From the NCBI GenBank assembly GCA_028065135.1, contig JAPTWR010000068.1, forward strand, positions 1-23,220: 23,220 nt of DNA, given 5' to 3'. Position 1 is the stretch's first letter. Every line of letters begins with the position of its first letter. Shown piece after piece: positions 4,823 to 20,678 of this stretch. The stretch is from Acidithiobacillus sp. Lineage in GTDB: Bacteria > Pseudomonadota > Gammaproteobacteria > Acidithiobacillales > Acidithiobacillaceae. The notes below the pieces were generated by a model, which ran no database searches, was not told the DNA's origin, and was given only the letters and a program-made list of their open reading frames with translations. A program made the position numbers and the translations under genes.

Positions 4823-4907
4823 GCGAGAGTGGCGGAATTGGTAGACGCACTGGATTTAGGTTCCAGCGCCGCACGGCGTGGGAGTTCGAATCTCCCCTTT
4901 CGCACCA
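4823..4907 (+). tRNA. tRNA-Leu (anticodon UAG), CCA encoded
   Basis: An 85-nt class II tRNA. The acceptor stem GCGAGAG pairs with CTTTCGC (one G-U), followed by discriminator A and an encoded CCA. The D-arm carries TGGCGGAATTGGTAGACGCA, the anticodon stem CTGGA/TCCAG encloses TTTAGGT giving UAG, there is a short variable arm (CGCCGCACGGCG), and the T-arm has GGGAG-TTCGAAT-CTCCC. It decodes CUN leucine codons. Its 3' end faces an integrase gene and is the likely integration target. Confidence 0.97.
4881..4907 (+). other. Candidate attachment site at the 3' end of tRNA-Leu
   Basis: Integrases of this type usually recombine within the T-arm and acceptor 3' half of a tRNA, leaving the tRNA intact at one junction. 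The integrase starts 92 bp downstream and points away. No second copy of this segment was found by eye later in the window, so the other junction lies outside or has decayed. Inference from arrangement. Confidence 0.5.
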
Positions 4908-4946
4908 AATAGTTAGAGTGAAGTCATGAATCCATATTGATTTTAC

Positions 4947-4998
4947 GCTGCATATATGCTGCACTAAGCTTCCGAATTGAGTGCAGCGGGAGTGCAGC
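4947..4998. repeat. Cluster of four TGCAGC/GCTGCA half-sites before the integrase
   Basis: GCTGCA at 4947-4952 and GCTGCAC at 4958-4964 face two copies of GTGCAGC at 4981-4987 and 4992-4998. The last copy ends at the base before the integrase ATG and covers the ribosome-binding region. The sites could bind a repressor or excisionase, or form an mRNA hairpin that masks the start. Confidence 0.5.
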
Positions 4999-5982
4999 AT
5001 GGCAACTATAAATTCACGGGAAGACCAGGATGGCATTACGATCGGCTGGCAAGCCATCGTGCGCAAGAAGGGTTATCCAAGCCAGACAAAAACCTTTCGG
5101 ACCAAACGGGATGCCGAGGCGTGGGCACGGCTTACTGAATCGGCCATGGAACGCGGGTTGTGGCAAAATCAGAGCGACGCAGACAGTACAACGCTGGCCG
5201 ATGCGCTGGATCGTTACGGTAGGGAAGTCTCCAGCTTGAAGAAATCGGGCAAGATTGAACTGTACCGCATTGGAACACTCAAGACGGACAAAATCGCCAA
5301 ACTGCACTTATCGCGAATTCGCGGCGCTGACCTCGCAGAGTATCGAGATCGGCGATTGAACGTGGGGCTTTCTGATAGCTCCGTGCGCCTAGAGTTAGCC
5401 ATCCTCTCCAATCTGTACACGGTCGCCATGAAGGAGTGGCGTATGGAAGGCTTACGCAACCCGGTATTGTCAGTGCGGAAACCATCGCCAGGCAAGGCAC
5501 GGGATCGAAGGTTGTCGCCGATTGAAGAAAAGAAACTATTGGGCGAATGTACCCCACCATTGAAGGCCATCATCCTGTTCGCTCTGGAGACCGGGATGCG
5601 GCGGGGGGAGATACAGAAGTTACTCTGGAAGGATGTGGACCTGATCAAATGTACTGCCCAGTTATTTGATACCAAAAACGGGGAAGATCGGACCATTCCA
5701 CTGTCCAGTCGCGCTATTGCCGTCCTGAAAGCGTTGCCGCGCAACATCAACGGCAAGGTGTTCCCAGGTGCGGACATATCCCATTCCTTTACTGCCGCCT
5801 GCCGCCGCGCAGCCATTGATGACTTACGCTTCCACGACCTGCGCCACGAGGCCACCAGCCGTTTTTTCGAGAAGGGCTTGAATCCCATGCAGGTGGCGGC
5901 CATTACCGGCCACAAGACCTTGCAGATGCTGAAACGCTATACTCACTTGAGAGCGGAGGACCTGGCGAAGATGCTGGGGTGA
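4999..5982 (+). CDS. Tyrosine-type site-specific integrase
   Basis: A 327-residue phage/island integrase. The N-terminal part (residues 1-60) is an AP2-like arm-binding region with GWQAIVRKKGYPSQTKTF. Residues 65-160 form the core-binding domain. The catalytic domain carries R201 (TGMRRGEI), K226 (TKNGEDR), H279 and R282 (FHDLRHE), H305 (TGHKT) and nucleophile Y314 (KRYTHL), so all catalytic residues are present. ATG 4999 is chosen for the GGGAG upstream and the typical short N-terminus. Its place next to tRNA-Leu suggests it brought in the following accessory DNA. No excisionase gene is recognised nearby. Confidence 0.95.
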   Translation: MATINSREDQDGITIGWQAIVRKKGYPSQTKTFRTKRDAEAWARLTESAMERGLWQNQSDADSTTLADALDRYGREVSSLKKSGKIELYRIGTLKTDKIAKLHLSRIRGADLAEYRDRRLNVGLSDSSVRLELAILSNLYTVAMKEWRMEGLRNPVLSVRKPSPGKARDRRLSPIEEKKLLGECTPPLKAIILFALETGMRRGEIQKLLWKDVDLIKCTAQLFDTKNGEDRTIPLSSRAIAVLKALPRNINGKVFPGADISHSFTAACRRAAIDDLRFHDLRHEATSRFFEKGLNPMQVAAITGHKTLQMLKRYTHLRAEDLAKMLG

Positions 5983-7430: not shown

Positions 7431-7560
7431 ATTCGCTCACCGCCCGCGCGGTGGTATGATGTATGCACGAAACAAACGGGATGAACGGAACGACGCGGTA
7501 CGCAAAGGAGATCGAACATGGGCATGATGGATTATATCATCGGGAAGAACGTGGGGCGGG
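7431..7560 (+). repeat. 130-bp direct repeat, copy 2
   Basis: Copy of 6333-6462, offset by 1098 bp. It begins just outside the start codon of the oppositely oriented membrane protein gene and covers the promoter, leader and first 14 codons of the second paralogue. The high conservation of noncoding leader against the diverged proteins suggests recent conversion or selection on regulation. Confidence 0.95.
7432..7460 (+). promoter_or_regulatory. Promoter with palindrome in the spacer, copy 2
   Basis: TTCGCT (7432-7437), 17-bp spacer, TATGAT (7455-7460). The spacer palindrome is CACCGC-CCGC-GCGGTG (7438-7453). The single change from copy 1 lies in the loop, leaving the arms intact. Confidence 0.7.
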
Positions 7561-7946
7561 AGAGCGGGCGGGCGACAGACTCTGCCGCTGTATCGAACGC
7601 GCAACAGGACGCGCACGACGCTGAAATTGGCGAAATCCAAATGCAGACGCAAGTGTATCGGCTAATCGGCACGGTCAACACGCTGACGAAGCGATTCACG
7701 CGGGAGCGGCAGGAGCGACGTAATTGGCAGCTCACGGCAGAAGCGCGCAAGCTGTCAATGAAACAAATGGGCATGACCGAAGCCCAGGTTATTGCAAAGC
7801 AAAAGGAAATCCTTGCGGATCCAGTTCTGTGCGCCCAGATTGATCGGAACCTCGATGCGGAAACCGCAGAAATTGATGCCGAATTGGGCATCATGCAAGA
7901 AACGTCCGCAACCACTCAAGAAGCCAATAATTCATCATTTCAGTAA
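7518..7946 (+). CDS. Small charged hypothetical protein, paralogue 2
   Basis: A 142-residue soluble protein, paralogue of the gene at 6420. The first 15 residues are identical. The next 30 differ, and then the core TKRFTRERQERRNWQLTAE aligns with the same core of the first copy, followed by KLSMKQMGMTEAQV against KLSLMEKAGMTADDV. The C-terminus is acidic (AETAEIDAELGIM) and unlike the other. The ribosome-binding site is the same AAAGGAGA. A good hairpin and T-run follow at once. The function is unknown; the paired paralogues under one operator type could form a heteromer or be alternative partners of the membrane protein between them. Confidence 0.75.
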   Translation: MGMMDYIIGKNVGRESGRATDSAAVSNAQQDAHDAEIGEIQMQTQVYRLIGTVNTLTKRFTRERQERRNWQLTAEARKLSMKQMGMTEAQVIAKQKEILADPVLCAQIDRNLDAETAEIDAELGIMQETSATTQEANNSSFQ

Positions 7947-7977: not shown

Positions 7978-8016
7978 AATTTTGTCGAACGAGGTTAAGG
8001 CGTTCTGCTCTGTTCG

Positions 8017-8205
8017 TCAGGTGCGTATCATGTCCGGATGGAAAGCAATAGTATCCCATGAACCGCCATCATGCATGTCACGAACACCATCCGGATATGA
8101 CAAGCGAATGGAATCAGGAGATCTGAGTTCAACCAGACTTCCCAGAGCATCACCACATAATTGCCCAAGGAAATAACCTTGGGCACGGAGCAGTTGCGAA
8201 ACCAT
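8017..8205 (-). pseudogene. ADP-ribosylglycohydrolase (DraG/ARH family), N-terminal fragment
   Basis: Sixty-two residues that match the start of ADP-ribosylglycohydrolases: LLRAQGYFLGQLCGDALGSL, then SPDSIRLSYPDGVRDM and DGGSWDTIA. The next family block, which holds the metal-binding TDD/S residues, is missing. After DTIA the frame turns to FHPDMIRT and stops, and no continuation is seen in other frames downstream. Full-length proteins are about 250-350 residues, so this cannot be active. Its ATG overlaps the stop of the preceding gene (TGATG), so it was once translationally coupled to it. Such enzymes remove ADP-ribose from proteins or nucleic acids. A short imperfect inverted repeat (CATGTCCGGATGG near 8031 and CCATCCGGATATG near 8090) may mark the rearrangement. 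Confidence 0.75.
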
Positions 8206-8540
8206 CAGAACAGATGGAAATAGATTATTTCCATCTCGTCTTGGTGAACTAAAATTATTTCACCCCCATCTTGGGAATCGAATCTGTCTAAATGATATTC
8301 GCCCCCTACATCCTCATAACAGTCCGCCCTAAATATAATGTTTCCGTGGCCAGCTATGATAACAACCTCAAATTCGTCGCTATGATCGTATTTATTTCTA
8401 AGGCGGCAGCGGCAAACCTGTGTTCCTATTTCATCCGCGTTAACGGCAAGCGCTCCATTAGATGTATAAAAGCCATCCAATTGGCCCCCACCATCTATAT
8501 TAATCCATGTGGCAGTGATTGTCGTCTTGTCTTCAAACAA
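8205..8540 (-). CDS. Hypothetical acidic protein coupled to the ARH fragment
   Basis: A protein of about 111 residues with no recognised family. It is acidic and beta-rich in appearance (TTITATWINIDGGG, FEVVIIAGHGNIIFRADCYE, GGEIILVHQDEMEIIYFHLF). The chosen start is a TTG at 8540, because AGGAGG lies eight bases upstream; a TTG at 8567 in the same frame lacks such a site. The stop overlaps the ATG of the ARH fragment. The protease gene lies 75-100 bp upstream on the same strand, so the three probably formed one transcript. A substrate-binding or immunity role would fit the context but nothing in the sequence shows it. Confidence 0.6.
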   Translation of the reverse strand: MFEDKTTITATWINIDGGGQLDGFYTSNGALAVNADEIGTQVCRCRLRNKYDHSDEFEVVIIAGHGNIIFRADCYEDVGGEYHLDRFDSQDGGEIILVHQDEMEIIYFHLF

Positions 8541-8641
8541 GTCACGCTCCTCCTCTCTTCGCAACAAAAGTCATTTATAATGCCGGATTATGCGAACCGA
8601 TTGACATAATTTCAGTAACGCCCTCATAACACCTGCTGTAA

Positions 8642-9286
8642 TCAAATCGGCAATGTACTCATAAATTGTCCGATCTTCACGACGTTCGCGTGCTCGGTAG
8701 TGGCGGTAATCGTTAAGGGGGTAGTCCTCGGCGTGCCCGTGTAGAGCCCAACGAGGCCAAACTTCCCATTGCCGATATCCACGACAACGGGGGCGCCTGA
8801 CATGCCTGCCTTACCTTGGGATGTCAGTCGCAGATGAAAAGAATCTTCTTGTTCTACGAGGCCCGCTTGGCCATCTAGTACGTTTTGCAAAATCTGATCA
8901 TCATCAGGCGCGAAGTCTAGGCAGGTAATGAGTGCAGATCGCAATAGCCCGATGTCTGAAACCACAATATCAAAAGCATCGCCCGTATAGTCGTCAAGCG
9001 GAATGGCCATGATATCGTCGCTTTCTGCTGTTTGTACGGCATCAGACGCAGCGGAGACGAGGCGTTTGCCCGCTGTATACATATCAAAATTCTTTACGAT
9101 ATCTGAATGCACGCCCGTCCACACCTCGAAACGCTCACGATCTGTAACAGCATGAGCGACCGACACTGCAAAAAAGCGTTCCTCTTTTTTCACGACTACA
9201 CCAAATGTCGGTGTCATCAAAATGCCATCTCGATACGCATAAAATAAAACAACCGTCTTTTGCAAACTATCGGATGTTATATCCAT
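8642..9286 (-). CDS. Trypsin-like serine protease domain protein
   Basis: A 214-residue protein consisting of one chymotrypsin-fold domain with no signal peptide, so it should be cytoplasmic. The histidine is H45 in FFAVSVAHAV, the aspartate is probably D111 in VVSDIGLLRS, and the serine is S163 in GKAGMSGAPVV. The spacing is normal for trypsin-like peptidases. Cytoplasmic stand-alone trypsin-like domains occur in bacterial conflict systems, where they act as effectors or are coupled to sensors (established for several systems; application here is inference). It is the first gene of a minus-strand set with an unknown protein and an ARH fragment. GGAG lies about nine bases before the ATG. Confidence 0.8.
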   Translation of the reverse strand: MDITSDSLQKTVVLFYAYRDGILMTPTFGVVVKKEERFFAVSVAHAVTDRERFEVWTGVHSDIVKNFDMYTAGKRLVSAASDAVQTAESDDIMAIPLDDYTGDAFDIVVSDIGLLRSALITCLDFAPDDDQILQNVLDGQAGLVEQEDSFHLRLTSQGKAGMSGAPVVVDIGNGKFGLVGLYTGTPRTTPLTITATTEHANVVKIGQFMSTLPI

Positions 9287-10040: not shown

Positions 10041-10493
10041 TTAGGAAACGCGGGGTGCGTTTTTTATGGCCTGCGCGACATCTTCCAATTTTTCTGGTTC
10101 GGACAATTCGCACTCCCAAAGGACGACGACCCTCCATCCCATGGCCGCGAGCGACTTCATCGCCGCCTCGTCGCGCTCCTTGTTGCGGGCGATCTTGGCA
10201 GTCCACCAGTCGGATCTAGTTTTGGGAATGCGGTGGCGGGGGCAACCCTCGTGACCATGCCAGAAGCAACCATGGACGAAGATGGCGATCCGCCTTGATC
10301 GAAACACGATGTCTGGGCATCCGGCGAGGCCTCGATCATGCAGGCGGTACCGCAGGCCCGCTTTCCACAGAGCCCGCCGGACGAGCATCTCGGGTTTCGT
10401 GTCGACCGATCTGACGCGCGACATGATCTCGGAGCGGGTGAGTGGTTGCCGGGACGTCCGCGTCTTCCTCATCCCACCCCCTTTTTTCGTCAT
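10041..10493 (-). CDS. vsr: Very short patch repair (Vsr) mismatch endonuclease
   Basis: A 150-residue endonuclease that nicks 5' to T in T:G mismatches created when methylated cytosine deaminates. It has SEIMSRVRSVDTKPEMLVRR (E35 region), the catalytic D61 in GCPDIVF, and FVHGCFWHGHEGCPRH with the histidine and zinc ligands, plus a later zinc cysteine in LWECEL. Length and order match E. coli Vsr. ATG 10493 is chosen because GGAGG lies seven bases upstream; ATG 10472 is an alternative. It is the last gene of the minus-strand restriction-modification group and is expected to protect sites of the C5-methyltransferase encoded at 13674-14711. Confidence 0.93.
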   Translation of the reverse strand: MTKKGGGMRKTRTSRQPLTRSEIMSRVRSVDTKPEMLVRRALWKAGLRYRLHDRGLAGCPDIVFRSRRIAIFVHGCFWHGHEGCPRHRIPKTRSDWWTAKIARNKERDEAAMKSLAAMGWRVVVLWECELSEPEKLEDVAQAIKNAPRVS

Positions 10494-10596
10494 GCTTCCC
10501 CCTCCAATGGTGGCGATTGGAGCGATCCTCGTCATGCCGCAGGTCATTGCGGTTGCGCCGCAAGAGCGGGTCAACCGCAAGCGGCAAGATTCTTGC

Positions 10597-12510
10597 TCAA
10601 AGGCCCAACACTTGATGGACCGGCTCTCCATCCTCCAGCCGCTTCTCCATCATGTCGTAATTTTGTGCTATGCCTATCAACGCGCTCGCCGGGCCTGGAC
10701 AATCGCCGTGGGAAAACGCCTCCATGATCCTGGAGAACATCACGTGCGTGTAATCCCCGGCCATGGCGCTCACAAACTCCAACAGGGGGTGCTCGCTGTT
10801 CCCATCGTGCGCTATCTTGTTCCTCATTCTGTAGACAAAGTTGACCTCATCGGCGGAATCCCTGTAAAACTCCGCCAGTTTCCGCAAAGCCATCTTCGTG
10901 TCCACGTAGAAGGACCGCAAGTCCTCGACTTGCTCGTTCATCAGCTCGCCAAGGTCGATAGTCGCCAGATCGCCCAAGGCGTCTATGAAAGAGCGTAGCG
11001 TTATCATTTCTCCAGGGACGTGCGCGAACCCGGCCTTTACAAGAAGGTCAGGAGGTATCAGCCGACCTCCGTTGTTCATGTTCGCGACCATGACTTGTTG
11101 ACGCAGTGTCCAACCATATTCATAGGCTTTCGTGACCGCTCTCGCCTTGCCCACCACGGCGACGATCACGTCGATGTTCTCCTCGCTGTCCTTTTCGTTC
11201 GTCGCGAACCAGTTCGAGGAGGTCTTTTCCGGTTTCGAGCAGAGCGTTTCGAGAGATATCCAGTAGGATAAAAGCCTTTCTCCGGGGGAATAGCTCTCCT
11301 CAGCCCTCCTTAGCCAGTAAAGCGCGTCGTCCACTTTGCTGGAGAAGCCGTGCGCCGACGCTTTCGCCATCCCTCTCTCCAGATCATTCAGGTGGGTGGA
11401 GTGTTGGGAGATAAATTCGGCGTTGATGATGAACTTTTTGGTGATATCGTCCTCCGCGCGTTCGAACGTGTGCGTGCTTGCGCCGTTGATGCGCCCCTCC
11501 GGGTCGATGACGACATAGGATTTGCTCACCATGATCGGAGCGGCCCCCGGTCTCAATCTCCGCAGTACGCTCAGCGCTTTTTGGACGCGGTTTCTAGCCG
11601 CGTCAGCCGCCGATCTTCGCCCGCACTTGGAAACCTGGTGAACCAACGCGTTCGTGGCGCATCGGCGTGGGCCAAAGTGGAAAAGTTCCGAATCAACGGC
11701 TCCGTCGGTCGCCTCCCGAACGACGCGCGGATTCTTCGACGGGGAGTAAAACTCCACCCCGGAGACCATGATCGTTTCCTCGACATCGAGCCCGTCGATG
11801 CCGAATATGAAATGGGACTCTTCCACGTCGTTGTTGAAGAATTTGGAGAACGCGTCGATCCTGGCGTTTTCGCCAAGAGCCAGATCAAAGGCTATGAGGT
11901 TTTTCCGATACTCCGCCAGGCGCGGCTCGTCGGCGTTTTCGGGAAAGGGTATTCCGTGTGGAAAGTTCCAAAGGACGTGTCCTTGGAAGGGGACCGGGGA
12001 GTTGAACAGTTTTCCGGGGAGGGGTCTTATGTCATCGTCGGTGAGTCCGATGTTTCGGAATTCCACGATCATGTTGTTCGCTATGGCCTTGACCCTCGCT
12101 TTTTCGGCGGGTCCAAGCTCCTCCAGCGTCATCATCCCCTTCAGGCTCGACAGCAACGAACCAAAATAGGTTCCGTCGCGGAAGAGTCGGAGGGCGGAGC
12201 GGCAAAGCTCCTTCATGTATCCAGGACGGCGTTTGTAGTTGTCAAACTCCTTGATGATCTCCCGCACATGGATGCGCAACACCCCCTCAAGTCCTGGATC
12301 GGTTTTGAGATAGTTCCCCAGCGTCGATCGGAAGAAGTTCCTGTTGTTCGCGCTCAACAGATCGTTGTACGTCATCTCGTCCTGAAGCTCCTTGATGATG
12401 GCGTGCGCATTGAAAAGCTTGAGGAGGGATCGTCTCGATCCCACGCCATCGAAAAGGTCGCTCCAGCATTCCCAAAAATATCTCGTGGCGTGGCTCAATT
12501 GCATGTTCAT
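10597..12510 (-). CDS. Large protein with C-terminal HEPN (ApeA-like) motif inside the R-M locus
   Basis: A 637-residue soluble protein. The first 400 residues are not recognised. The C-terminal 230 residues resemble ApeA-type HEPN domains: LLSYWISLETLCSK near residue 417, a helical region, and RMRNKIAHDG near 563-568, which gives the R-x4-H catalytic motif of HEPN RNases. HEPN proteins often cleave RNA when infection or restriction failure is sensed. It lies between the restriction enzyme and vsr genes, all on one strand, a place where an abortive-infection backup would make sense (inference). An in-frame ATG at 12546 is possible. ATG 12510 is preferred because GAGGAA lies at a suitable distance. 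Whether the RNase site is active is not known. Confidence 0.7.
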   Translation of the reverse strand: MNMQLSHATRYFWECWSDLFDGVGSRRSLLKLFNAHAIIKELQDEMTYNDLLSANNRNFFRSTLGNYLKTDPGLEGVLRIHVREIIKEFDNYKRRPGYMKELCRSALRLFRDGTYFGSLLSSLKGMMTLEELGPAEKARVKAIANNMIVEFRNIGLTDDDIRPLPGKLFNSPVPFQGHVLWNFPHGIPFPENADEPRLAEYRKNLIAFDLALGENARIDAFSKFFNNDVEESHFIFGIDGLDVEETIMVSGVEFYSPSKNPRVVREATDGAVDSELFHFGPRRCATNALVHQVSKCGRRSAADAARNRVQKALSVLRRLRPGAAPIMVSKSYVVIDPEGRINGASTHTFERAEDDITKKFIINAEFISQHSTHLNDLERGMAKASAHGFSSKVDDALYWLRRAEESYSPGERLLSYWISLETLCSKPEKTSSNWFATNEKDSEENIDVIVAVVGKARAVTKAYEYGWTLRQQVMVANMNNGGRLIPPDLLVKAGFAHVPGEMITLRSFIDALGDLATIDLGELMNEQVEDLRSFYVDTKMALRKLAEFYRDSADEVNFVYRMRNKIAHDGNSEHPLLEFVSAMAGDYTHVMFSRIMEAFSHGDCPGPASALIGIAQNYDMMEKRLEDGEPVHQVLGL

Positions 12511-12627
12511 CCCAAATGCTTCCTCACCCCTTGGCCCGTAACCCATTTTTGGACGTGCCGACAGCCATGCTCATCGACGATGGGCGATGGTTTGAAGCGC
12601 GTTGGGCCGCGAAGAATTCGCGGTTGC

Positions 12628-13629
12628 TCACTCGTCCAGAAACAAGACCTCTGACGGTTTCCATCGTTCGCCGGCGGCCGCGTCCGCCCGCCGCAGCCAC
12701 TCCGCTATCCTGTCCTCAGGAGCGACGTCTTTTCCCCAATACTCCTCGAATAGGGCGCCGTCCATGCGCAGGGCGGCGTTCCTCAGTTCATTCTCGATCA
12801 GCTTCAGCGCCCTCTCTATGTACAATCCGCCGTTGTCGTCGTTGTCCGGGTTCGCCACGCTCCCGGCGGAGAAGAGGTCCCGAGCTTGATGGCAAAGAAC
12901 GCCATGGTAGGTCAGGAGGTAAAGCGCGATGTCGTCGTACTTGTGCTTGGCCCTGCCGGATTGGACGATCTGGGGGCAGAGTAGAACGGCCTCGGCTCTA
13001 AGCCGGACTTTTTCCGCATTGTCGAGTTCCGTGTACAATCTTGCCTGTATCGGAAGGGTGTGCTCCTCGCCCGGCGCGTCTTCAAGCCACCAGAGCCGCT
13101 CTCCCCCCTTCAAGCGTTTGCGGGCGTACTCTCTGATGTACTGCATCTTTTCATGCATGGGTAGGTGGCGGAACTTGTCGTAGACGACCCCCATTTGTTC
13201 GAAGAGGGAAGTTGGCGCACCAATCTCCACTTCGAATCTGGGTACGTGGGAGGTGCGCACGTGCATCACGCTCTTCTCATACTCTCCCCACTTCACGTCC
13301 GGAACGCCGCCCATCTTGCCGAAGACGATGTAGACGGTCTTCACCGCGTCGATACGGTTCGTCTCCAGCACGCTGTTCGCCACACTGCGCCAGGTGTCGT
13401 TGGTCGTGAACTTGACCTCGATACCGAACTCCCCGACCGCGATGTCAGGGAACGCCTGGGCGTGGGGGTGGAAGTCGATCGTCACATCGGGATCTTCGAC
13501 AACCTCGTTGACGACGATTCGGACCCTGTTCTCGAATTCCTGGGCGTTTTTGAAAGGGGCGGCCAGCGCCTCGCTCCGAAGGCGCCCCGTCACTTCGTCG
13601 AGAAAATCCTCGAATTCCTCTTTCGTCAT
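12628..13629 (-). CDS. Predicted type II restriction endonuclease (PD-(D/E)XK)
   Basis: A 333-residue protein with a PD-(D/E)XK nuclease signature in the N-terminal third: FPDIAVGEFGIEVKF, with D62 and E71-V-K73. A helical N-terminus (EEFEDFLDEVTGRLRSEALA) and a long C-terminal half without recognised motifs follow. Its position immediately after the C5-methyltransferase (44 bp) and before vsr makes a type II restriction enzyme by far the likeliest reading. The recognition sequence cannot be deduced. GGAG lies just before the ATG at 13629. It is not a member of a family I can name with certainty. Confidence 0.78.
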   Translation of the reverse strand: MTKEEFEDFLDEVTGRLRSEALAAPFKNAQEFENRVRIVVNEVVEDPDVTIDFHPHAQAFPDIAVGEFGIEVKFTTNDTWRSVANSVLETNRIDAVKTVYIVFGKMGGVPDVKWGEYEKSVMHVRTSHVPRFEVEIGAPTSLFEQMGVVYDKFRHLPMHEKMQYIREYARKRLKGGERLWWLEDAPGEEHTLPIQARLYTELDNAEKVRLRAEAVLLCPQIVQSGRAKHKYDDIALYLLTYHGVLCHQARDLFSAGSVANPDNDDNGGLYIERALKLIENELRNAALRMDGALFEEYWGKDVAPEDRIAEWLRRADAAAGERWKPSEVLFLDE

Positions 13630-13673
13630 GTTCTCCGCGCGGCAAGCCCGCTCCTCTTGAAAAGAGGATCAGG

Positions 13674-14711
13674 CTAACCCCGACCAGCGGCCATGTCCAC
13701 CAGAAGGCATTCCGCCACCGCGTTGGCGACGTGCCACGCCAGCACGGGGGGGACTGCGTTGCCCACCTGTCGCTCCGTCTCCCGCAGCTTGGAGTCGAAG
13801 ATGAAGTCGTCGGGGAAGGATTGCAATCTCGCCGCCTCGCGCATGGATATCCTGCGGGGCAGCTCGTAATGCCACTGGATGTTACCATGGCATTCCGCCC
13901 GTATGGTGTAGCCAGGCCGGTTCGGAAGCAGGCGCCGGTCCCCTTGTTCGGGGCTCCGGTTGGCGCGGCTCCAGACGTGGTTGATTGCTTCGTCCTCGCC
14001 ATAGTCGGCCAAATCGGAGATCGCCTCCCGAGCAGTGACCCAAGACTCGCGGTCATGCGTGGAGAGGGGAGGAGCGAACGGGGGGACGCCGGGAAGCGTC
14101 CCGACCAGCATGACGCGCTCCCGAGACTGCGGGACGCCGTAATCCGCCGCGAGGTAGAGATGATGGGTCACTTCGTACCCTAGTGCGCGGAAGTCGGCCA
14201 GGACGCGCTTGAGGGCCTCCGCATGATGGCTCATCAGCAGCCCCTTCACGTTCTCGGCGACGAAGACTCTGGGCTTGACTCGCGCGACCACCTCGACCAT
14301 GGCCCGGTAGAGGCCGCTGCGTTTTCCTTCAATTCCTGCCCCTTTGCCGTTGACGGAAATGTCCTGGCACGGGAATCCACCGATGACCACGTCCGCCTTG
14401 TCCGGGAGGGCGTCCATCATGGACCAGATATCGCCGTGGCGGATGTGGGGGCCGATGTTCCTCCGATAGGTCCGGCACGCGGCCTCGTTGATCTCGTTGG
14501 CCCAGATGATGTCGAAGGGGTTTCGCGGGTAACGTCGGCCCAGGAACGAGAACGCGCCCTTGAAGCCTAGATCCATTCCCCCGCATCCGGAAAAGAGGGA
14601 GATCACCGAGAGGGACTCTTCTGCCTCGTCAGCGTTGGTTGGAAATCCCGGATGGCCATCCGTCGCGGGGAGGGGGGTGATTACGTCAGGGTCAGGATCC
14701 ATGTACAGCAT
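13674..14711 (-). CDS. DNA (cytosine-5-)-methyltransferase
   Basis: A 345-residue C5-cytosine methyltransferase. All main motifs are present in order: motif I LFSGCGGMDLGF (about 39-50), motif IV GGFPCQDIS with catalytic C115, motif VI ENVKGLL (about 153), motif VIII QSRERV, motif IX REAARLQSFPDDF, and motif X QVGNAVPPVLA. The target-recognition segment between VIII and IX is short, ending in YTIRAECHGNIQWHY. An in-frame upstream start is possible, but ATG 14711 has AAGGAG eight bases before it. It protects host DNA against the neighbouring endonuclease and creates the T:G mismatches that Vsr repairs. The target sequence is unknown. Confidence 0.95.
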   Translation of the reverse strand: MLYMDPDPDVITPLPATDGHPGFPTNADEAEESLSVISLFSGCGGMDLGFKGAFSFLGRRYPRNPFDIIWANEINEAACRTYRRNIGPHIRHGDIWSMMDALPDKADVVIGGFPCQDISVNGKGAGIEGKRSGLYRAMVEVVARVKPRVFVAENVKGLLMSHHAEALKRVLADFRALGYEVTHHLYLAADYGVPQSRERVMLVGTLPGVPPFAPPLSTHDRESWVTAREAISDLADYGEDEAINHVWSRANRSPEQGDRRLLPNRPGYTIRAECHGNIQWHYELPRRISMREAARLQSFPDDFIFDSKLRETERQVGNAVPPVLAWHVANAVAECLLVDMAAGRG

Positions 14712-14756
14712 CTTCAGTCTCCTTTCTTTGAAAGCAAGTGTCGCCCACATGCGTGG

Positions 14757-16016
14757 TCACGACAAGTTTTTCTTTTTGCGCCCGCCGGATGCTGGCAAGG
14801 CCTGCGACGATTTCGGGGGCGGCTGATAATCCGGGTGCATCGCCAAATCCATTTCGGTACGGTTGTCATAAATGCGCACGCGCCGCGCAACACGGGCCAC
14901 CAGCGCCGTATGGAGAAACCCATTGAGCAGGTTGCGACTGACCCGATCTTCCGGGATGTCCGCACGCGCACCGCGATGTGCGCGGGACTGGACACGCCGT
15001 ACCAAGGTATCCAGATCATGAACACCCACATAATCCAGATCCACTACAGCCCCTGCCCGAATGCTTTCAAGTACCTGATCGAATCGGCCCGCAAGGGAGA
15101 ACGTGGTTTCCACCAGCAGATTTTGACGGGCATCCAGGCCCCGCCGCCAGTCCGCATTGGAGAGCAGATAGGCCACCTGCAATTCTGGCAGGGGTTCATT
15201 GGCGGCGGGAATCAGGCCCATGGCCCGATCTGCGTCATCTTCGTCTGGCAGCCATTGCCGGATGGCCTCACGGGCCATCGTGACAAGGCGTGCGTGATCT
15301 TTCGGAAGCGACGGCAGATAACGATCCACGTCGACCCATGCGCTTTCCGCAATGCCCAACTGGCGGCGCAGCGGCGCGGAGAGGAGCGTTTTGCCGGAAC
15401 CGATACTGCCGGCGAGATAATGCAAAACCGGTGCACTCCCGTCGGCACGGTGACAGTTGGTCCGCGCTTCAGCCATTTCTTCCGCATAGTGAGCCAGTCG
15501 GATAGCCACGAAACGCCGGTAGGTGGACGCGTCCTGTTTGGGATCGGCGGGCAGCCCGCGTGCGGCGAGGGGTCCTTCCGGTGGCAATCCCCTTTGTTTG
15601 AATTTGGCTTCCCGCAACTGTTGAAAGGCAGCAGGCGTCAATCCGCCGTTGGCGTGCTCCGGACAGGCCACATGCCAGTAGGCGCCACTGACCAATAAGG
15701 TACCCGGCAAACCGCAGTGCTCACAGATCCGGCGTGAGCGGTCACCATAATCCTCCACGATCTGAAACAGGCCGTGTTTCTGCGCGTCCGTCAGTGTCGC
15801 GTCGTAGCCATAGTAATAGCGCAGCGTCCCGAATTTCTGTTTGACCTGGGTGACGTGGAGACCTATGCCGTTCTCCTGGCAGTAGGTCTCTACGGCCTGA
15901 GACAGGGCGCGCAGCAGGGGATACCAGCCGTCTTCGCACTCAAAATGGATTTCCCGGCAGCCGCTGTAGAGTGCCGGGTAATCCCGTCGCAAGGCGTGTT
16001 CCAGGGCGATGTCCAT
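14757..16016 (-). CDS. Zinc-ribbon plus zeta-toxin-like P-loop kinase protein
   Basis: A 419-residue two-part protein. The N-terminal half has DGWYPLLRALSQAVE, VTQVKQKFGTLRYYY and a zinc ribbon built from CEHC (98-101) and CPEH (118-121). This is a domain seen in phage-related hypothetical proteins. The C-terminal half is a P-loop kinase with Walker A GSIGSGKT (203-210), LLVETTFS, RVQSRAHRG and IPEDRVSRNLL, like zeta toxins and AAA_33 kinases. AGGAG lies eight bases before ATG 16016. It is the fourth gene of the ATPase-phosphatase-phosphatase-kinase group. The substrate could be a sugar nucleotide, RNA end or protein; nothing decides. No antitoxin (epsilon-like) gene is adjacent. Confidence 0.75.
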   Translation of the reverse strand: MDIALEHALRRDYPALYSGCREIHFECEDGWYPLLRALSQAVETYCQENGIGLHVTQVKQKFGTLRYYYGYDATLTDAQKHGLFQIVEDYGDRSRRICEHCGLPGTLLVSGAYWHVACPEHANGGLTPAAFQQLREAKFKQRGLPPEGPLAARGLPADPKQDASTYRRFVAIRLAHYAEEMAEARTNCHRADGSAPVLHYLAGSIGSGKTLLSAPLRRQLGIAESAWVDVDRYLPSLPKDHARLVTMAREAIRQWLPDEDDADRAMGLIPAANEPLPELQVAYLLSNADWRRGLDARQNLLVETTFSLAGRFDQVLESIRAGAVVDLDYVGVHDLDTLVRRVQSRAHRGARADIPEDRVSRNLLNGFLHTALVARVARRVRIYDNRTEMDLAMHPDYQPPPKSSQALPASGGRKKKNLS

Positions 16017-16038
16017 GTGTTTTTCTCCTGTATCTAAT

Positions 16039-16938
16039 TTAGAACGCGGGCGCATTTCCCAGCGTTACGCTCTCCATATCGGTTGCGGTGGCCATCCAGC
16101 CCTGCTGTTCCTGATGGCAAAACAGGGTCAAGCCCTGATCGCGGTATCGCTCGGCTTGATCCAGATGGGCGGCACCCGTATCCAGAAACACGTGTCCGGC
16201 GACCTGCAACAAGCGCCCTTCCCGGGGCGGCGTGATGGTGTGCCCCACATAGGTGCGGGACAGCGCGGCCGGGACAATGGGTATCTCGTGGGACAGGGCA
16301 TAACGCAAGCTCCGTCCCCACAGCAGATGATCTTCCCAAGTCCCCGTAGCGTCATAGCCGATGACCGGATGTGGCTCCAGCCAGCGGGGATGCGCGTCCT
16401 CTGCGAGAGTGGCATCATTCCAGAACACCGCCACGCCATCCTCGCATTCTGCCGCCAGTTCCGCGTGCAGTACCTGAAACCGCCCGGCGGGAGCCGTATT
16501 TCCAGGGTCGACGATGCGTACCAAAGGCACCTGAGACAACGCCGACCGCCATCGTTCGCACGATTCTTCATCCGTCCGATAAAGGCGAAACCAGTCCCAG
16601 CCGCCATTGCGGGCAAAGAGATCGGCGTAGGCCGCGGTCCGTTGGGCTTCCTCTCGCCGCATCGCCCGCAAATGACCCAGATTCAACGTGGCCAGCAGCA
16701 TGGCGTCGTGGTTGCCCAGCACCGGATAAAACCAGGGCGCCTCCAGCAGATCCAGCGCCCCGGCACTGTTCGGGCCGCGATCCACCAGGTCACCCACGCT
16801 GAACAGGCGATCCGTATCGTAGTCGAAGGCCACATGATCCATGAGCCTGCGCAGGACATCGGGGTGACCGTGCAGATCACCGACGATGAAATCCCGGCCC
16901 TGAAGATTGGCCGGATGGGCGATGACACGCGGATTCAT
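16039..16938 (-). CDS. PPP-type metallophosphatase (lambda-phosphatase/ApaH-like)
   Basis: A 299-residue phosphatase with the three metal-binding signatures of the PPP superfamily: GDLHG (20-24), GDLVDRG (49-55) and GNHD (75-78), plus later metal histidines in LHAEL and YVGHTI. Families with this set act on phosphoproteins, diadenosine polyphosphates or RNA ends. A ribosome-binding site (AGGAG) lies eight bases before the ATG, inside the preceding gene, whose TGA overlaps the ATG (ATGA at 16935-16938). Two phosphatases of different subfamilies translated together next to a kinase suggest a shared phosphorylation cycle, but no substrate is visible. Confidence 0.85.
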   Translation of the reverse strand: MNPRVIAHPANLQGRDFIVGDLHGHPDVLRRLMDHVAFDYDTDRLFSVGDLVDRGPNSAGALDLLEAPWFYPVLGNHDAMLLATLNLGHLRAMRREEAQRTAAYADLFARNGGWDWFRLYRTDEESCERWRSALSQVPLVRIVDPGNTAPAGRFQVLHAELAAECEDGVAVFWNDATLAEDAHPRWLEPHPVIGYDATGTWEDHLLWGRSLRYALSHEIPIVPAALSRTYVGHTITPPREGRLLQVAGHVFLDTGAAHLDQAERYRDQGLTLFCHQEQQGWMATATDMESVTLGNAPAF

Positions 16939-17738
16939 GAAACCTGCTCCTCCAGTTCAATCACCTGATCCAACCGCACGCCGGTACCTTCCCTCGGGTA
17001 TCCGAAGGCGTTGGACCATATGCGCACCGCACCGATACGGTAATCCACCGCATGATGGGTATGGCCGTGCATCCACAGCCGCACCCCCTGATCACCAAAA
17101 CGCGCCACGGTCTCCTCCAATCGGCTGGCGTAGGCGCCGGACAGATCATCCTGCCGGAACGACTGGTAGATGGACTCCCATGCCGGTGCGTGGTGGGTGA
17201 TCACGACCTTGTGGCCGGCCCAGGGCTGGGCGATCGCGTCCTCCAGCCAGACTTTGCTGGCCAGATGCACCTCCAGGGTATCCCGCGGCAAAAAGCGCCG
17301 GGCACCCTCATGGCACCGTATCCGCTTATGGTCCTGCATGGTCTCCTGGGCCGCCCGCATGGCATAGGGGTCGCCGCCATCAAAATCGGACCACAGGGTG
17401 GTCCCGAAAAAGCGGATATCGCCGATGTCCACGCCTTGTCTTTCCAGCAAAGTACACCGCGCCATCAGATCCTCCGGCAAATGTCTGGCCAGACCTTCCC
17501 GCCATTTTTCCGGTGCCCGTTCGACGGACAAACCCCAGTAATCATGGTTTCCCAGCACCGCCACGATATGTGGAAAAGGATCAGCCACAATTTTCAGCCA
17601 GTCGGCCAGCTTTTTGGGCGTGCCGAAGTCTCCCGCCAGTACGAGAATACTGTCCCGGTCCGTAGGCAAAGACGCCAGACGGACGGTGGCGGGTGGATTC
17701 ACATCCACGTGAATGTCGGAAATCAATCGGATGAACAT
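16935..17738 (-). CDS. Calcineurin-like metallophosphoesterase
   Basis: A 267-residue single-domain metallophosphoesterase. Metal ligands are in SDIHVD (D8, H10), AGDFG (D37), GNHDYW (N64, H65), THHAP (181-185) and HGHTHH (224-229). No signal peptide or membrane segment is seen, so it is cytoplasmic. Members hydrolyse phosphoesters, cyclic nucleotides or UDP-sugars. The stop codon overlaps the PPP-phosphatase start. The ribosome-binding site is weak (GAG at a normal distance), which may mean lower expression or dependence on the upstream ATPase gene 89 bp away. Confidence 0.88.
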   Translation of the reverse strand: MFIRLISDIHVDVNPPATVRLASLPTDRDSILVLAGDFGTPKKLADWLKIVADPFPHIVAVLGNHDYWGLSVERAPEKWREGLARHLPEDLMARCTLLERQGVDIGDIRFFGTTLWSDFDGGDPYAMRAAQETMQDHKRIRCHEGARRFLPRDTLEVHLASKVWLEDAIAQPWAGHKVVITHHAPAWESIYQSFRQDDLSGAYASRLEETVARFGDQGVRLWMHGHTHHAVDYRIGAVRIWSNAFGYPREGTGVRLDQVIELEEQVS

Positions 17739-17827
17739 GGTATTTTTCTCGTAAAACGTATGGCTATAACGCCATGCGGGTGATTTTCATCGCGCCGATC
17801 CTTATGGGTTGAATACCCTTCCCATAC

Positions 17828-19357
17828 TCACTGCAGACGCCTCAGTGCCCCATCTTCATCCATCTGTGCTTTGGCCTCCAGTTGCAGCAGAGATCGTGTG
17901 ATCACGGCCAATCGCCGCAGTGAACCGGGTTTACGCTGAAACCGCCGTCGCAATGCCCCGGCCACCTGTGGATTCAGGGACGGCAACGCCCAGGGTTCCG
18001 TGCCCAGATCACGGGCAATATCCTTGAGGATATTCGTAAAAATACGGTCAAAATCCCCTCCGGCGGGTTCCCCCACCCGAATGATGGTGAAGCGCGATTG
18101 CAAGGGTCCGGGCAGATCCTCCACATCATTGGCCGTGGCGACCCAGTTGACGGACGAATAATCCACCGGCCCCAGCAAAAATTCGTCCGTGACGCGACTG
18201 GCCGTCGCCGGTTCCAGCATCGTCAGCAACGTTTCCCAAAGGCGGCCGTTGTTTCGCCCCGTGCCGATTTTCTCCATTTCATCCAGACAGACCAGCGGGT
18301 TGGCCAGGCGGTTTTCGAGCATGAATTCGACCAGATAACCCGCCCTCGCGGAGCTCCAGCCGCGCGCCGTGCCTTTGAGCATCATGTTATCGTTCATCCC
18401 CGCCATCGTCACGAATGCCGTTGGCAACCCCAACGCCTCCCCCAGACTTTGCACGAAGCGGCTCTTTCCGAGCCCAGGATTCCCCACCAGCAGGAGAGGG
18501 CGGAACTTCAGCACCGGTTGACCAGTGACGCGATTGAGCGCCCATTCATTCTCCAGCATATCCATGGCCCGCGACATCCAGGGGTATTCCCTCCGCAAAT
18601 TCTCCGTCCAGGACAGGCTGCCCGGCCAGGTCTGCAAGGGCAGGGGCCGAAGCAACGGTTTGAAACGCTCCAACGCCTGATTTTCCTTGTTATCATTTCC
18701 TGGGGCGATACTGTTCAGTATTTGACGGCTGGGCTCCGAAGCGGGCTTGTTCTGGAGCAGCAACATCTCCGCCTGCCATTTCAACCCCGTCAATTGCAGA
18801 TCATCGAAGGACAACGCTCGCATGATGCCCAACACCTCTTCGGCCAGAGCGGCATCTTTCCGCCCCACGGCCGCCTGCAAACCCAGCCCGAAGGCCACCG
18901 GACGCATCATGCTAAAGCGTTGATTCTGGTTTTTCCAAAGGAAATCAGATCGTTCCTCTTCGGCCTGCCATCTCTGGAAAGCCTGCAACCAACGGGGGTC
19001 GTATGCCGTCCTGCCAGCTTCAATATTCATTCGCAACAGCAGCATCTGCCCCATCAAAGAACCCCATTCCGCGCCGATCGCCAACCACTGTTCGGCAATG
19101 TTTCGATCGTTTGGCAGTCGGCTATCCCCTGCGAGATAACAGCGCCCGATATCCACCAACCCTTCGCGCACACTCAGATCGACGATGCTTTTGGGTTCAC
19201 GGGCGGACACCAGGTCGAAATCTTCATCCAGAAGCTTCAGCTCAATGCTGCTCCAGATCGCAAGAAAGACGTCTGTGTTCCGTTTGCCGGATTCTTCCAC
19301 GTCATTCTTCAATTTTTCGCCCAGAGCGAGCAGTTGGTCGATACATTGCGCGGTCAT
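17828..19357 (-). CDS. Lon-like AAA+ ATPase without a protease domain
   Basis: A 509-residue protein. The first 270 residues are helical and contain repeat-like elements suggestive of Sel1/TPR-type scaffolding (DIGRCYLAGDSRLPND, AEQWLAIGAEWG). The AAA+ module has Walker A GNPGLGKS (292-299), Walker B LVCLDEMEK (about 355-363), sensor 1 WVATAND (405-411) and an arginine finger in GPLQSRF (R422), in the spacing of Lon. The C-terminal Lon protease (Ser-Lys) domain is missing and there is no room for it. A strong AGGAGG lies five bases before ATG 19357, preferred over the in-frame codon at 19414. It leads the ATPase-phosphatase-kinase group and is divergent from an HTH protein. Confidence 0.85.
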   Translation of the reverse strand: MTAQCIDQLLALGEKLKNDVEESGKRNTDVFLAIWSSIELKLLDEDFDLVSAREPKSIVDLSVREGLVDIGRCYLAGDSRLPNDRNIAEQWLAIGAEWGSLMGQMLLLRMNIEAGRTAYDPRWLQAFQRWQAEEERSDFLWKNQNQRFSMMRPVAFGLGLQAAVGRKDAALAEEVLGIMRALSFDDLQLTGLKWQAEMLLLQNKPASEPSRQILNSIAPGNDNKENQALERFKPLLRPLPLQTWPGSLSWTENLRREYPWMSRAMDMLENEWALNRVTGQPVLKFRPLLLVGNPGLGKSRFVQSLGEALGLPTAFVTMAGMNDNMMLKGTARGWSSARAGYLVEFMLENRLANPLVCLDEMEKIGTGRNNGRLWETLLTMLEPATASRVTDEFLLGPVDYSSVNWVATANDVEDLPGPLQSRFTIIRVGEPAGGDFDRIFTNILKDIARDLGTEPWALPSLNPQVAGALRRRFQRKPGSLRRLAVITRSLLQLEAKAQMDEDGALRRLQ

Positions 19358-19392
19358 GTCAGCCTCCTTTTTGCGGAATGACAATGGTGCAG

Positions 19393-19421
19393 AGCATAGC
19401 GATGTAATACACACATGTCAA
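19393..19421 (-). promoter_or_regulatory. Promoter of the AAA+ ATPase operon
   Basis: On the minus strand a perfect -35 TTGACA (19421-19416) and a -10 TATGCT (19398-19393) are 17 bp apart. Transcription would begin about 30 bases before the ATPase ATG. It lies in the divergent intergenic region shared with the HTH gene. Confidence 0.8.
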
Positions 19422-19424
19422 CTA

Positions 19425-19518
19425 TCCTGTCCTGTAACATGGTTTTGCAGTTTTCCGTTTTTATGTAGATCTGTCAGCACCCGTTTTGCAGGACGGTGGC
19501 GGTGGGATACCATATAAT
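19425..19518. promoter_or_regulatory. Divergent control region with direct repeats and HTH-gene -10 box
   Basis: A 9-bp direct repeat GTTTTGCAG occurs at 19442-19450 and 19483-19491 (41 bp apart, close to four helical turns), with a tandem TCCTG at 19425-19434. A perfect -10 TATAAT is at 19513-19518, without a good -35 at 17 bp, which suits an activated promoter. The repeats are candidate binding sites for the HTH protein. Confidence 0.55.
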
Positions 19519-19553
19519 GCAGATCGTTCAAAAGCGCTGTCCTAGAGGTGTTC

Positions 19554-20678
19554 ATGTCCATCCGTGCCTACCCGATCCCGATTGAAGATTTACGTAACGT
19601 GCTGACGCTTTCTCACCTCAGTCTGGTGGAGATAGCGCGCAGATTTGGGGTGAGCAGAAGCAATCTGATGGGGGTCGTCGGCGGTAGGCGGACGCTCAGT
19701 GATGACAGACTCCTGCAGTTGGTGGGCTGGGCGGGGCTGGTGGCGGATATGGATGCTTCGGATACGCTTCACCTTGGTTCTGGAATCCATCTTTGGAAGA
19801 TCGCTTCCGAAACGCAAATGGAGGCTTTTTTGCATCTGCCCACGGGGATGTTGCCGGAGAATTTGCGGTGGAGCGTGGCACTCGAATTCCCACCCCAGGA
19901 GCGGGACTGGATCCACCTCGTGGCCGAGGTCGGCAAGGACTGCTGGGTGCTGCTGTCCGTCCGGCCCGTCTATTTTGCGTTGCTCCGGGATCGTGTTCCG
20001 GGCGTTGGACGCCCCATGGGGATGGCGAGTCTACAAAAGCCGCTGAACCAGATCATCGCCACTACCGGTGCCAAGGGTTTGTATGTTGCGTGGGCGGAGC
20101 AGCCACAAACGCTCTCCTGGGTGGAGCCCGAGATGCGGGAGCGCTATGGAGAGGATTTGTCTGCCTGGATGGCTTGGGCGCGTCAAAAGTTGGCTTTGGA
20201 CACCAGTGAAATGAGTGGCCAGACCAATCCACCGATGGCGGTACCAAATGACGCGCGGGACGATACGGTTCCTTGTGATCAGGCCTGGGCACTGTTTGCT
20301 CACCGGCTGGATGTCGCCGGCGCCGCGCACCAGGATGTGGCGGATATGCCGATATTCAACATGGAAACGGTCCATGATTATCCTGTAGGCATGCTGCGGT
20401 TGGATCGGACATGGCTGGGCGACGCCCTGCTGGAACTCGGGAAAACTGGACGGCTGCGATGCTATGTGCGGGCAGACGGTGCTGCGGTAGTGGTCATAGT
20501 CTCGCCGTCGGCCGCACGCTGTGGATTGCCGCAACACTGGGTTGCGCCACCAACGGCGGAAGGCTACCTGATATGGCATGACCAAATCCTGGAGATATCC
20601 GCTCACGTCGGGACTGGCGACCACTGTATTGGGCCGGTTGTCGCATCCTGGAATCGCTGCGCGAAAATTCCCTCATAA
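19554..20678 (+). CDS. HTH protein, probable regulator of the AAA+ operon
   Basis: A 374-residue protein. The N-terminus carries a helix-turn-helix, LSLVEIARRFGVSRSNLMGVVGGR (about residues 22-46), XRE-like in pattern, followed by RTLSDDRLLQLVGWAGLV. The remaining 300 residues are not recognised. There are two halves of similar size with hydrophobic beta-rich blocks (CWVLLSVRPVYFALL; RCYVRADGAAVVVIV), possibly a duplicated sensing domain. AGAGG lies five bases before ATG 19554. It is divergent from the ATPase gene across 196 bp with direct repeats, the usual arrangement of a local regulator. A strong hairpin terminator follows. The function is inferred from the motif and location only. Confidence 0.65.
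   Translation: MSIRAYPIPIEDLRNVLTLSHLSLVEIARRFGVSRSNLMGVVGGRRTLSDDRLLQLVGWAGLVADMDASDTLHLGSGIHLWKIASETQMEAFLHLPTGMLPENLRWSVALEFPPQERDWIHLVAEVGKDCWVLLSVRPVYFALLRDRVPGVGRPMGMASLQKPLNQIIATTGAKGLYVAWAEQPQTLSWVEPEMRERYGEDLSAWMAWARQKLALDTSEMSGQTNPPMAVPNDARDDTVPCDQAWALFAHRLDVAGAAHQDVADMPIFNMETVHDYPVGMLRLDRTWLGDALLELGKTGRLRCYVRADGAAVVVIVSPSAARCGLPQHWVAPPTAEGYLIWHDQILEISAHVGTGDHCIGPVVASWNRCAKIPS

What the first reader, a model, noticed from the sequence alone, without database searches (positions are those of the whole stretch)
14757..19357. Unnamed module: Lon-like ATPase, two metallophosphatases of different families, and a zinc-ribbon zeta-like kinase
Four genes in a row on one strand. The ATPase has full AAA+ motifs but lacks the Lon protease, the two phosphatases overlap by ATGA, and the kinase has an intact Walker A plus CEHC/CPEH ribbon. 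A kinase with two phosphatases and a remodelling ATPase suggests a reversible phosphorylation or nucleic-acid-end processing system. It sits next to a restriction-modification locus and has its own divergent HTH protein, as defence or stress modules often do. I know of no described system with this set.
Basis: partly seen in the sequence, partly recalled or inferred. Interest (0 to 1): 0.8.

Follow-up and report, generated by a model that had tools for sequence, protein, structure and literature searches.

The report
Swappable ATPase-phosphatase operon in defence islands
A mobile group of genes in acid-loving bacteria pairs a protein-threading ATPase that lacks the usual protease with interchangeable phosphate-removing enzymes and a zinc-binding kinase; it often sits near anti-virus genes and may be an undescribed cell-defence system, though its function is untested.

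Summary
In detail: on the minus strand, a Lon-type AAA+ ATPase without protease, two metallophosphatases of different families (ATGA overlap) and a zinc-domain/zeta-like kinase, with a divergent HTH gene, in an Acidithiobacillus-like genome. In Acidithiobacillaceae the HTH and ATPase genes diverge together (r=0.93, 16 loci), while closely similar MPP2-PP1L cassettes (mostly about 90% identity) sit behind three different ATPase+HTH heads, with breakpoints at the MPP2 start. The exact four-gene set was not seen outside the family. A simpler core recurs in Alpha- and Betaproteobacteria and other families of its class: protease-less Lon-ATPase followed by the kinase's zinc domain (no Pfam or PHROG name found) and/or a metallophosphatase, in 8 of 22 testable loci against 0 of 49 beside full-length Lon. 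Several family loci lie near CRISPR-Cas, Dsr1-like, GmrSD, SIR2, Mrr-like or R-M genes (no random control). The R-M genes of this window are a later insertion that replaced the kinase's C-terminus. Best reading: a regulated conflict/defence cassette with an ATPase core and exchangeable phosphoesterase effectors. Function and substrates are inferred. No description found in the open papers searched.

The parts
19554..20678 (+). HTHR: divergent XRE-type HTH regulator with a C-terminal phage-186-CI/LexA-like fold (residues ~262-373); ORF from 19548
19358..19553 (.). Divergent promoter/operator region (196 bp) between AAA and HTHR; in genome G004 about 9 kb with defence genes lies here
17828..19357 (-). 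AAA: protease-less Lon-type AAA+ ATPase (509 aa) with helical N-terminal half; ORF to 19414
16935..17738 (-). MPP2: calcineurin-like metallophosphoesterase (phrog_1649 type); weak match to PADLOC candidate PDC-S10 (33.7 bits)
16039..16938 (-). PP1L: PPP/NinI-like metallophosphatase (phrog_246), ATGA overlap with MPP2
14757..16016 (-). KIN: N-terminal zinc domain (here called DGW: GW..K[EQ]K..C..CG..C...H) fused to a zeta-like P-loop kinase; last 43 aa of most relatives replaced by an unrelated tail
10041..14816 (-). Inserted block: C5 methylase (13674-14750), type II REase (12628-13629), 649-aa protein without family match (10597-12546), Vsr-like gene (10041-10631, named by eye). Surroundings, not part of the ancestral module; its left end was not determined
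4823..5982 (+). tRNA-Leu (4823-4907) and tyrosine integrase (4981-5982): likely entry point of the island

Best explanation
A mobile, regulated conflict (probably anti-phage or anti-plasmid) cassette. SHOWN by comparison: a divergent HTH gene and a protease-less Lon-type AAA+ ATPase form a co-inherited head; behind it lies an exchangeable enzyme cassette of metallophosphoesterases (MPP2, PP1L, elsewhere MPP3 and others), in some genomes with a zinc-domain/zeta-like kinase; such ATPases are associated with phosphoesterase and zinc-domain genes in unrelated proteobacteria; several family loci lie near defence-type genes. INFERRED: HTHR represses the operon until induction. The ATPase, with a conserved pore-loop aromatic (W353), threads or remodels a protein trigger or its partner and thereby licenses the phosphoesterases. 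These hydrolyse phosphate esters of nucleotides, signal molecules or nucleic-acid ends so as to block a parasite. The zinc domain is an adaptor; the fused kinase is a dispensable extra effector.
For: Co-divergence AAA-HTHR r=0.93, p=0.0005, 16 loci. MPP2-PP1L 92-96% identical to the window's behind an ATPase of 25-26% identity with another divergent HTH in G003 and G008; DNA similarity stops at 17720-17743, the MPP2 start. Outside Acidithiobacillales: L043, L149, L068 (ATPase > zinc domain > MPP), L044 (same, zinc-domain ORF overlapping), L150 (ATPase > MPP), L164 (MPP > ATPase, 4-nt overlap), L142 (ATPase > PPP, 4-nt overlap), L041, L146, L151, L152, L171 (ATPase > zinc domain). Downstream phosphatase/zinc domain in 8 of 22 short Lon-ATPase loci against 0 of 49 full-length ones, p=3e-5. 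A profile built from Acidithiobacillus KIN alone finds, in 12,805 ORFs at E<=10, only zinc domains at ATPase loci or family KIN loci. Defence-type neighbours: Cas7e/Cas8e (G008), GmrSD + HNH effector + Dsr1-like pair between ATPase and HTH (G004), SIR2 (G009), REase_I fragment and Mrr-like (G003), R-M (window). Metallophosphatase systems DS-8/DS-9 protect against phage (PMC13092281, passages); calcineurin-like phosphoesterase is the commonest effector of a GTPase-centred conflict subsystem (PMC7159879, passage).
Against: No functional data. PADLOC has no hit for AAA, PP1L, KIN or HTHR and only a weak candidate-family hit for MPP2. Defence neighbours come from genes I picked, with no random-region control; other loci showed none by eye. 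Head-only pairs of G026 and G029 sit beside ABC-transporter genes (by eye). 14 of 22 ATPase loci of at least 400 aa and 19 of 20 shorter ones have no phosphatase or zinc domain downstream. Dropping four related Methylobacteriaceae plasmids leaves 4 of 18, p=0.004; dropping also the two loci that seeded the first profile leaves 2 of 16, p=0.06. HTHR-PP1L (r=0.53) and AAA-PP1L (r=0.38) also correlate, so exchange is partial; the MPP2 matrix mixes paralogues. MPP2 is a remnant in G004 and G006. Both phosphatase families are common in phages and plasmids. The HTHR fold match is moderate.
Confidence: 0.45

Rival explanations
1. Counter-defence or maintenance kit of the mobile element: the phosphoesterases clear host alarm nucleotides or repair ends, and the ATPase disassembles host complexes, so that the island survives transfer.
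For: All parts look like mobile-element genes: tRNA-Leu/integrase, plasmid and viral-contig relatives, phosphatase families in 248 and 149 of 50,697 phage records. A Rv2179c-like exoribonuclease and a macro-like gene recur near some loci (the macro label is by eye).
Against: Family loci lie near defence genes of different kinds. The one ATPase tried in the phage records (that of L043, E<=1e-20) had no match, though six viral contigs carry relatives.
Confidence: 0.2
2. Reversible phosphorylation or nucleic-acid-end processing: KIN phosphorylates, PP1L and MPP2 dephosphorylate, the ATPase remodels, as in Pnkp-type repair.
For: Kinase and PPP-type phosphatase in one operon; PP1L has a 17-bit match to bacterial Pnkp.
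Against: No ligase; score far under the 750-bit cut-off. Only 6 of 20 compared loci have a KIN match, two of them zinc domain only and one broken; elsewhere the zinc domain occurs without the kinase.
Confidence: 0.13
3. Toxin-antitoxin-like unit: KIN is a zeta-type toxin kinase and the phosphatases reverse it.
For: Zeta_toxin Pfam match above cut-off and complete Walker A; decay of KIN in G005, G006, G009 and G018 would fit a costly enzyme.
Against: No room for a small antitoxin gene beside KIN: PP1L ends 22 bp before it and the methylase starts 6 bp after it; in L023 MPP3 follows 55 bp after KIN. Most compared loci lack KIN.
Confidence: 0.07
4. Accessory genes heaped together on islands, with no joint function.
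For: Each enzyme family is widespread alone: PP1L-like (E<=1e-15) 35 of 274 and MPP2-like (E<=1e-8) 46 of 274 class genomes, within 10 kb of each other only in the family's representative G001.
Against: Swapping at a gene boundary behind three heads; overlapping genes; 8 of 22 against 0 of 49; a zinc-domain-only search of 349 genomes found one hit, and it adjoins such an ATPase.
Confidence: 0.15

Closest known systems
Lon (LonA/LONP1) AAA+ protease
   Different: No protease domain; a helical N-terminal half in place of the Lon N-domain; operon context with phosphoesterases
NTPase-centred conflict systems with exchangeable effectors (Kaur et al. 2020, PMC7159879; passages seen)
   Same: NTPase core plus exchangeable effectors; calcineurin-superfamily phosphoesterase the commonest in a GTPase-centred subsystem
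   Different: Lon-type ATPase instead of MoxR/STAND/GTPase; no vWA gene found; effectors are separate genes
Metallophosphatase defence systems DS-8/DS-9 (DefensePredictor, PMC13092281; passages seen)
   Same: Metallophosphatase as essential part; DS-8 joins it to an NTPase (NACHT)
   Different: DS-8 is one NACHT-metallophosphatase protein, DS-9 adds a HAD phosphatase; no Lon-ATPase mentioned; homology not testable here (sequences not at hand)
NinI/lambda-type PPP phosphatases and ApaH
   Same: PP1L has the PPP motifs and a phrog_246 match
   Different: Equivalog cut-offs for ApaH and PrpA-type models not reached
Zeta toxins (PF06414)
   Same: P-loop kinase core above Pfam cut-off
   Different: Fused to a zinc domain, no room for an antitoxin gene beside it, C-terminus replaced in this window
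Bacterial Pnkp RNA repair
   Same: Kinase and PPP phosphatase together
   Different: Separate proteins, no ligase, score under cut-off

Membership tests
Lon protease | Lon-type AAA+ domain | tested here: met
   (TIGR00763 81.7 bits over 141 residues)
Lon protease | C-terminal Ser-Lys protease domain | tested here: not met
   Protein ends with the AAA+ alpha domain; no Lon_C match up to E 0.1
Zeta toxin | Zeta_toxin Pfam domain with Walker A | tested here: met
   24.9 bits, cut-off 22.3; GSIGSGKT
Zeta toxin | Cognate epsilon-type antitoxin gene beside it | tested here: not met
   Neighbours are PP1L and the (inserted) methylase with 22-bp and 6-bp gaps; MPP3 after 55 bp in L023
Zeta toxin | UDP-GlcNAc phosphorylation and toxicity | not testable with these tools
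   -
PPP (NinI-like) phosphatase | GDxHG, GDxxDRG, GNH[DE] and two later metal-binding His | tested here: met
   GDLHG20, GDLVDRG49, GNHD75, HAE158, GHT232; phrog_246 E 9e-36; roles of the His recalled
Bacterial Pnkp | Kinase-phosphatase-ligase architecture | tested here: not met
   17.3 bits, cut-off 750; no ligase among ten window proteins
BREX | BrxL/PglZ/BrxC components | tested here: not met
   No PADLOC BREX hit for AAA, MPP2, PP1L, KIN, HTHR up to E 0.01
MoxR-vWA ternary conflict systems | MoxR ATPase with vWA partner | tested here: not met
   ATPase is Lon-type; no vWA Pfam hit among ten window proteins up to E 0.1
LexA/CI-type regulators (HTHR) | XRE HTH plus S24-like C-terminal fold | tested here: inconclusive
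Known anti-phage defence system | Demonstrated protection | not testable with these tools
   -

The most novel reading that the evidence does not exclude
A new class of prokaryotic immune system: a protease-less Lon ring ATPase acts as sensor or licensing machine for plug-in metallophosphoesterase effectors, coupled through an unnamed zinc adaptor domain that in Acidithiobacillus has captured a zeta-type kinase; a CI/LexA-fold repressor ties it to stress or phage induction.
Probability: 0.3. Interest if true: 0.78.

Novelty: new variant of a known kind. Interest (0 to 1): 0.57.

Why it matters
It would add a Lon-type AAA+ core to NTPase-plus-effector immune systems, give phage- and plasmid-borne metallophosphatases a partner, and put a recurrent zinc domain without Pfam or PHROG match on the map. 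The natural swaps between heads and enzyme cassettes make specificity directly testable.

Tried and rejected
Four-gene set as a conserved unit in unrelated hosts: not seen. HTHR in 1 of 274 class genomes; 8 protein clusters found in the protein database (capped list of 7,997 candidates). MPP2 and PP1L within 10 kb only in G001 of the 274 class genomes.

R-M genes as partners: rejected. The edge at 14817 is the same against L021, L029 and L134, and most relatives keep the kinase tail.

KIN against solved structures by sequence: no hit up to E 1; MPP2: nothing credible. Phage records with the L043 ATPase: none at E<=1e-20; the window's own ATPase was not tried there. Viral contigs with the L043 ATPase: only itself. 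Exact repeats of 11 bases or more of the tRNA-Leu tail elsewhere in the window: none. Two Acidithiobacillus mobile-element papers hold no 'phosphatase' or 'zeta' in the main text (find). Rhizobium and Bosea plasmid AAA-MPP pairs (L162, L163, L166) look FtsH-like (HExxH by eye) and were not counted as Lon-type. The short (<400 aa) Lon-like ATPases, mostly of Burkholderiales, have no such neighbours save L142.

How the fetched loci were chosen: 13 of 16 records; 8 of 68 records, picked partly because 'AAA family ATPase' was annotated there (1 Lon-type pair, 3 FtsH-like, 4 without).

Dropped before counts: remnants L033 and L134 and the lone HTHR of G005 (L133). In one search: loci with under 2.5 kb downstream (among them positive L044), L154 (MPP on the other strand), L148 (duplicate of L043), L016 (duplicate of L144), L018-L020 (Lon of family genomes) and the Acidithiobacillales loci. 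Classes there rest on ORF length (under 400, 400-689, 690 aa or more); a few loci of the middle class may be truncated Lon (L079 is cut by its contig end) and the long class may hold a plasmid ATPase that is not Lon (L158, 776 aa). The first zinc-domain profile was seeded with KIN, L041 and L146, so those two were hits by construction; a profile from Acidithiobacillus KIN alone also finds them (E 3.5e-7, 2.8e-10) and the others.
Full report

HOST. The assembly is not held. Where close relatives carry names they are mostly Acidithiobacillus; one AAA of 80% identity is on a contig labelled Planctomycetia MAG (P0012), probably misbinned. tRNA-Leu 4823-4907 is followed by an integrase.

THE MODULE IN THE FAMILY. 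Searches of 29 Acidithiobacillaceae genomes at E<=0.001: HTHR in 17 of 29 (13 with E below 1e-30), KIN in 10 of 29, PP1L in 28 of 29, which includes short ApaH-like matches, MPP2 in 15 of 29. The AAA search of 57 relatives matched 53, mostly full-length Lon. I compared 20 loci, the window included, one of them (G030) from a sister family. AAA is present in 20, HTHR in 16, PP1L in 14. MPP2-type genes are in 13: eight are 88-100% identical to the window's (itself included), four are MPP3-like paralogues (36-39%), one (G006) is a remnant. KIN is in 6, of which G006 and G030 have only the zinc domain and G018 is broken. The AAA and HTHR identity matrices correlate at r=0.93 (p=0.0005, 16 loci), PP1L-MPP2 at 0.67 (p=0.007, 12), HTHR-PP1L at 0.53 (p=0.001, 10), AAA-PP1L at 0.38 (p=0.016, 14), HTHR-MPP2 at 0.27 (p=0.04, 10), AAA-MPP2 at 0.15 (p=0.16, 13). 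The low MPP2 values owe something to mixed paralogues. The clean evidence for exchange is this: in G003 and G008 the MPP2-PP1L pair is 92-96% identical to the window's, yet lies behind an ATPase of 25-26% identity with a different divergent HTH gene; and in L022/L127, L027, L028 and L029 it is 77-94% identical behind an ATPase of about 41% and an HTHR of about 35%. DNA similarity stops at 17720-17743, the start of MPP2. Head-only pairs exist: L030, L032 and L036; L037 and L038 have little sequence downstream. Further members near some loci: a third MPP, a fourth phosphoesterase (phrog_547) and a Rv2179c-like exoribonuclease (PF16473). MPP2 is a remnant in G004 and G006, and PP1L has a stop in G006.

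THE KINASE AND THE R-M NEIGHBOUR. Most relatives share a 43-residue C-terminal tail that the window lacks. Similarity to L021, L029 and L134 stops at the same base, 14817. The R-M block (C5 methylase, REase matching PADLOC REase_II, a 649-aa protein, a Vsr-like gene) therefore came later. KIN is broken or truncated in G005, G006, G009 and G018, while dN/dS between the window and L021 over 400 codons is 0.27. It is a dispensable part.

DEFENCE ISLANDS. Among genes I picked from the flanks: GmrSD, an HNH effector and a Dsr1-like pair (951 + 373 aa) lie between AAA and HTHR in G004; SIR2 and a Mrr-like gene on the G009 contig, which ends inside PP1L; a REase_I fragment and a Mrr-like gene on the G003 contig that carries the rest of PP1L; Cas7e and Cas8e in G008; type II R-M in the window. 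No random control was run, and other loci showed no such gene by eye.

OUTSIDE THE FAMILY. HTHR: 1 of 274 class genomes, the family's own G001. In the same 274 genomes PP1L matches 35 (E<=1e-15), MPP2 46 (E<=1e-8), AAA 50 (E<=1e-19, mostly full-length Lon). It has no Pfam or PHROG match above cut-off in the proteins scanned. The first profile was seeded with two of these loci; a profile from Acidithiobacillus KIN alone recovers them all at E 2e-4 or better and, up to E 10, hits nothing else in 12,805 ORFs but family KIN genes and G030's zinc domain. Phosphatases adjoin the ATPase in L043, L044, L068, L149, L150, L164 and L142, with 4-nt overlaps in L142 and L164. In L144 a zinc-type motif seems fused to the ATPase (by eye; the profile does not match it) and the divergent HTH is of the G003/G008 type. 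Within 4 kb downstream of the ATPase, DGW/MPP/PPP genes were found in 8 of 22 loci of 400-689 aa with enough sequence, 1 of 20 shorter ones and 0 of 49 of 690 aa or more, taken as full-length Lon (p=3e-5). Without four Methylobacteriaceae plasmids found with one query it is 4 of 18 (p=0.004); without the two seed loci instead 6 of 20 (p=3e-4); without both 2 of 16 (p=0.06). A search of 349 phylum genomes with one DGW protein found a single hit, 234 bp behind a protease-less Lon ATPase. That query is insensitive, since it missed KIN in G001.

LITERATURE. Full-text searches of the open PMC library found no paper on this set (listings only, save the papers named). Passages read: PMC13092281 (metallophosphatase systems DS-8 and DS-9 protect against phage), PMC7159879 (calcineurin-superfamily phosphoesterase as commonest effector in a GTPase-centred subsystem), PMC12839542 (BREX components), PMC9503650, PMC10322971. 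In PMC12375680 the searched words gave no passage.

MECHANISM AND VERDICT. The regulated head, exchangeable phosphoesterases, defence neighbours and mobility fit a conflict system best (0.45). Counter-defence (0.2), an unlinked heap (0.15), end processing (0.13) and a toxin-antitoxin unit (0.07) remain. Substrate, trigger and phenotype are unknown.

Noticed in passing
window 10597-12546: 649-aa protein between the REase and Vsr-like genes has no match in Pfam (E 0.1), PADLOC, NCBIfam or PHROGs (E 0.01).
   Followed up: partly
window 6420-6875 and 7518-7946: Two paralogous small proteins both beginning MGMMDYIIGKNVGRE, with a membrane-type protein (6930-7424) between them; similar-looking small proteins lie near the ATPase-phosphatase pair of G102 (L142 10941-12085), by eye.
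   Followed up: no
L131 2826-6802: Dsr1-like defence protein apparently split into a SIR2 gene (373 aa) and a 951-aa gene that overlap by a base.
   Followed up: partly
L021 387-1949 and L029 2962-4689: Membrane-type protein plus OmpA-domain protein with a weak ZorB match downstream of two module loci; possible Zorya-like or envelope genes.
   Followed up: partly
L128 28-3232: Type I-E cas genes (Cas7e, Cas8e) on the same contig next to the third metallophosphatase of the G008 module.
   Followed up: partly
L162 2525-5346, L163 2534-5346, L166 2174-5310: Rhizobium and Bosea plasmids pair the same metallophosphatase family with an FtsH-like AAA gene (4-nt overlap in Rhizobium).
   Followed up: partly
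L042 13001-14122: A relative of the window's type II REase lies within 3 kb of another protease-less Lon ATPase in a viral contig (seen by eye).
   Followed up: no
window 8642-9286: Trypsin-like peptidase look (by eye) in the island's low-GC stretch (47% GC at 8001-9000).
   Followed up: no
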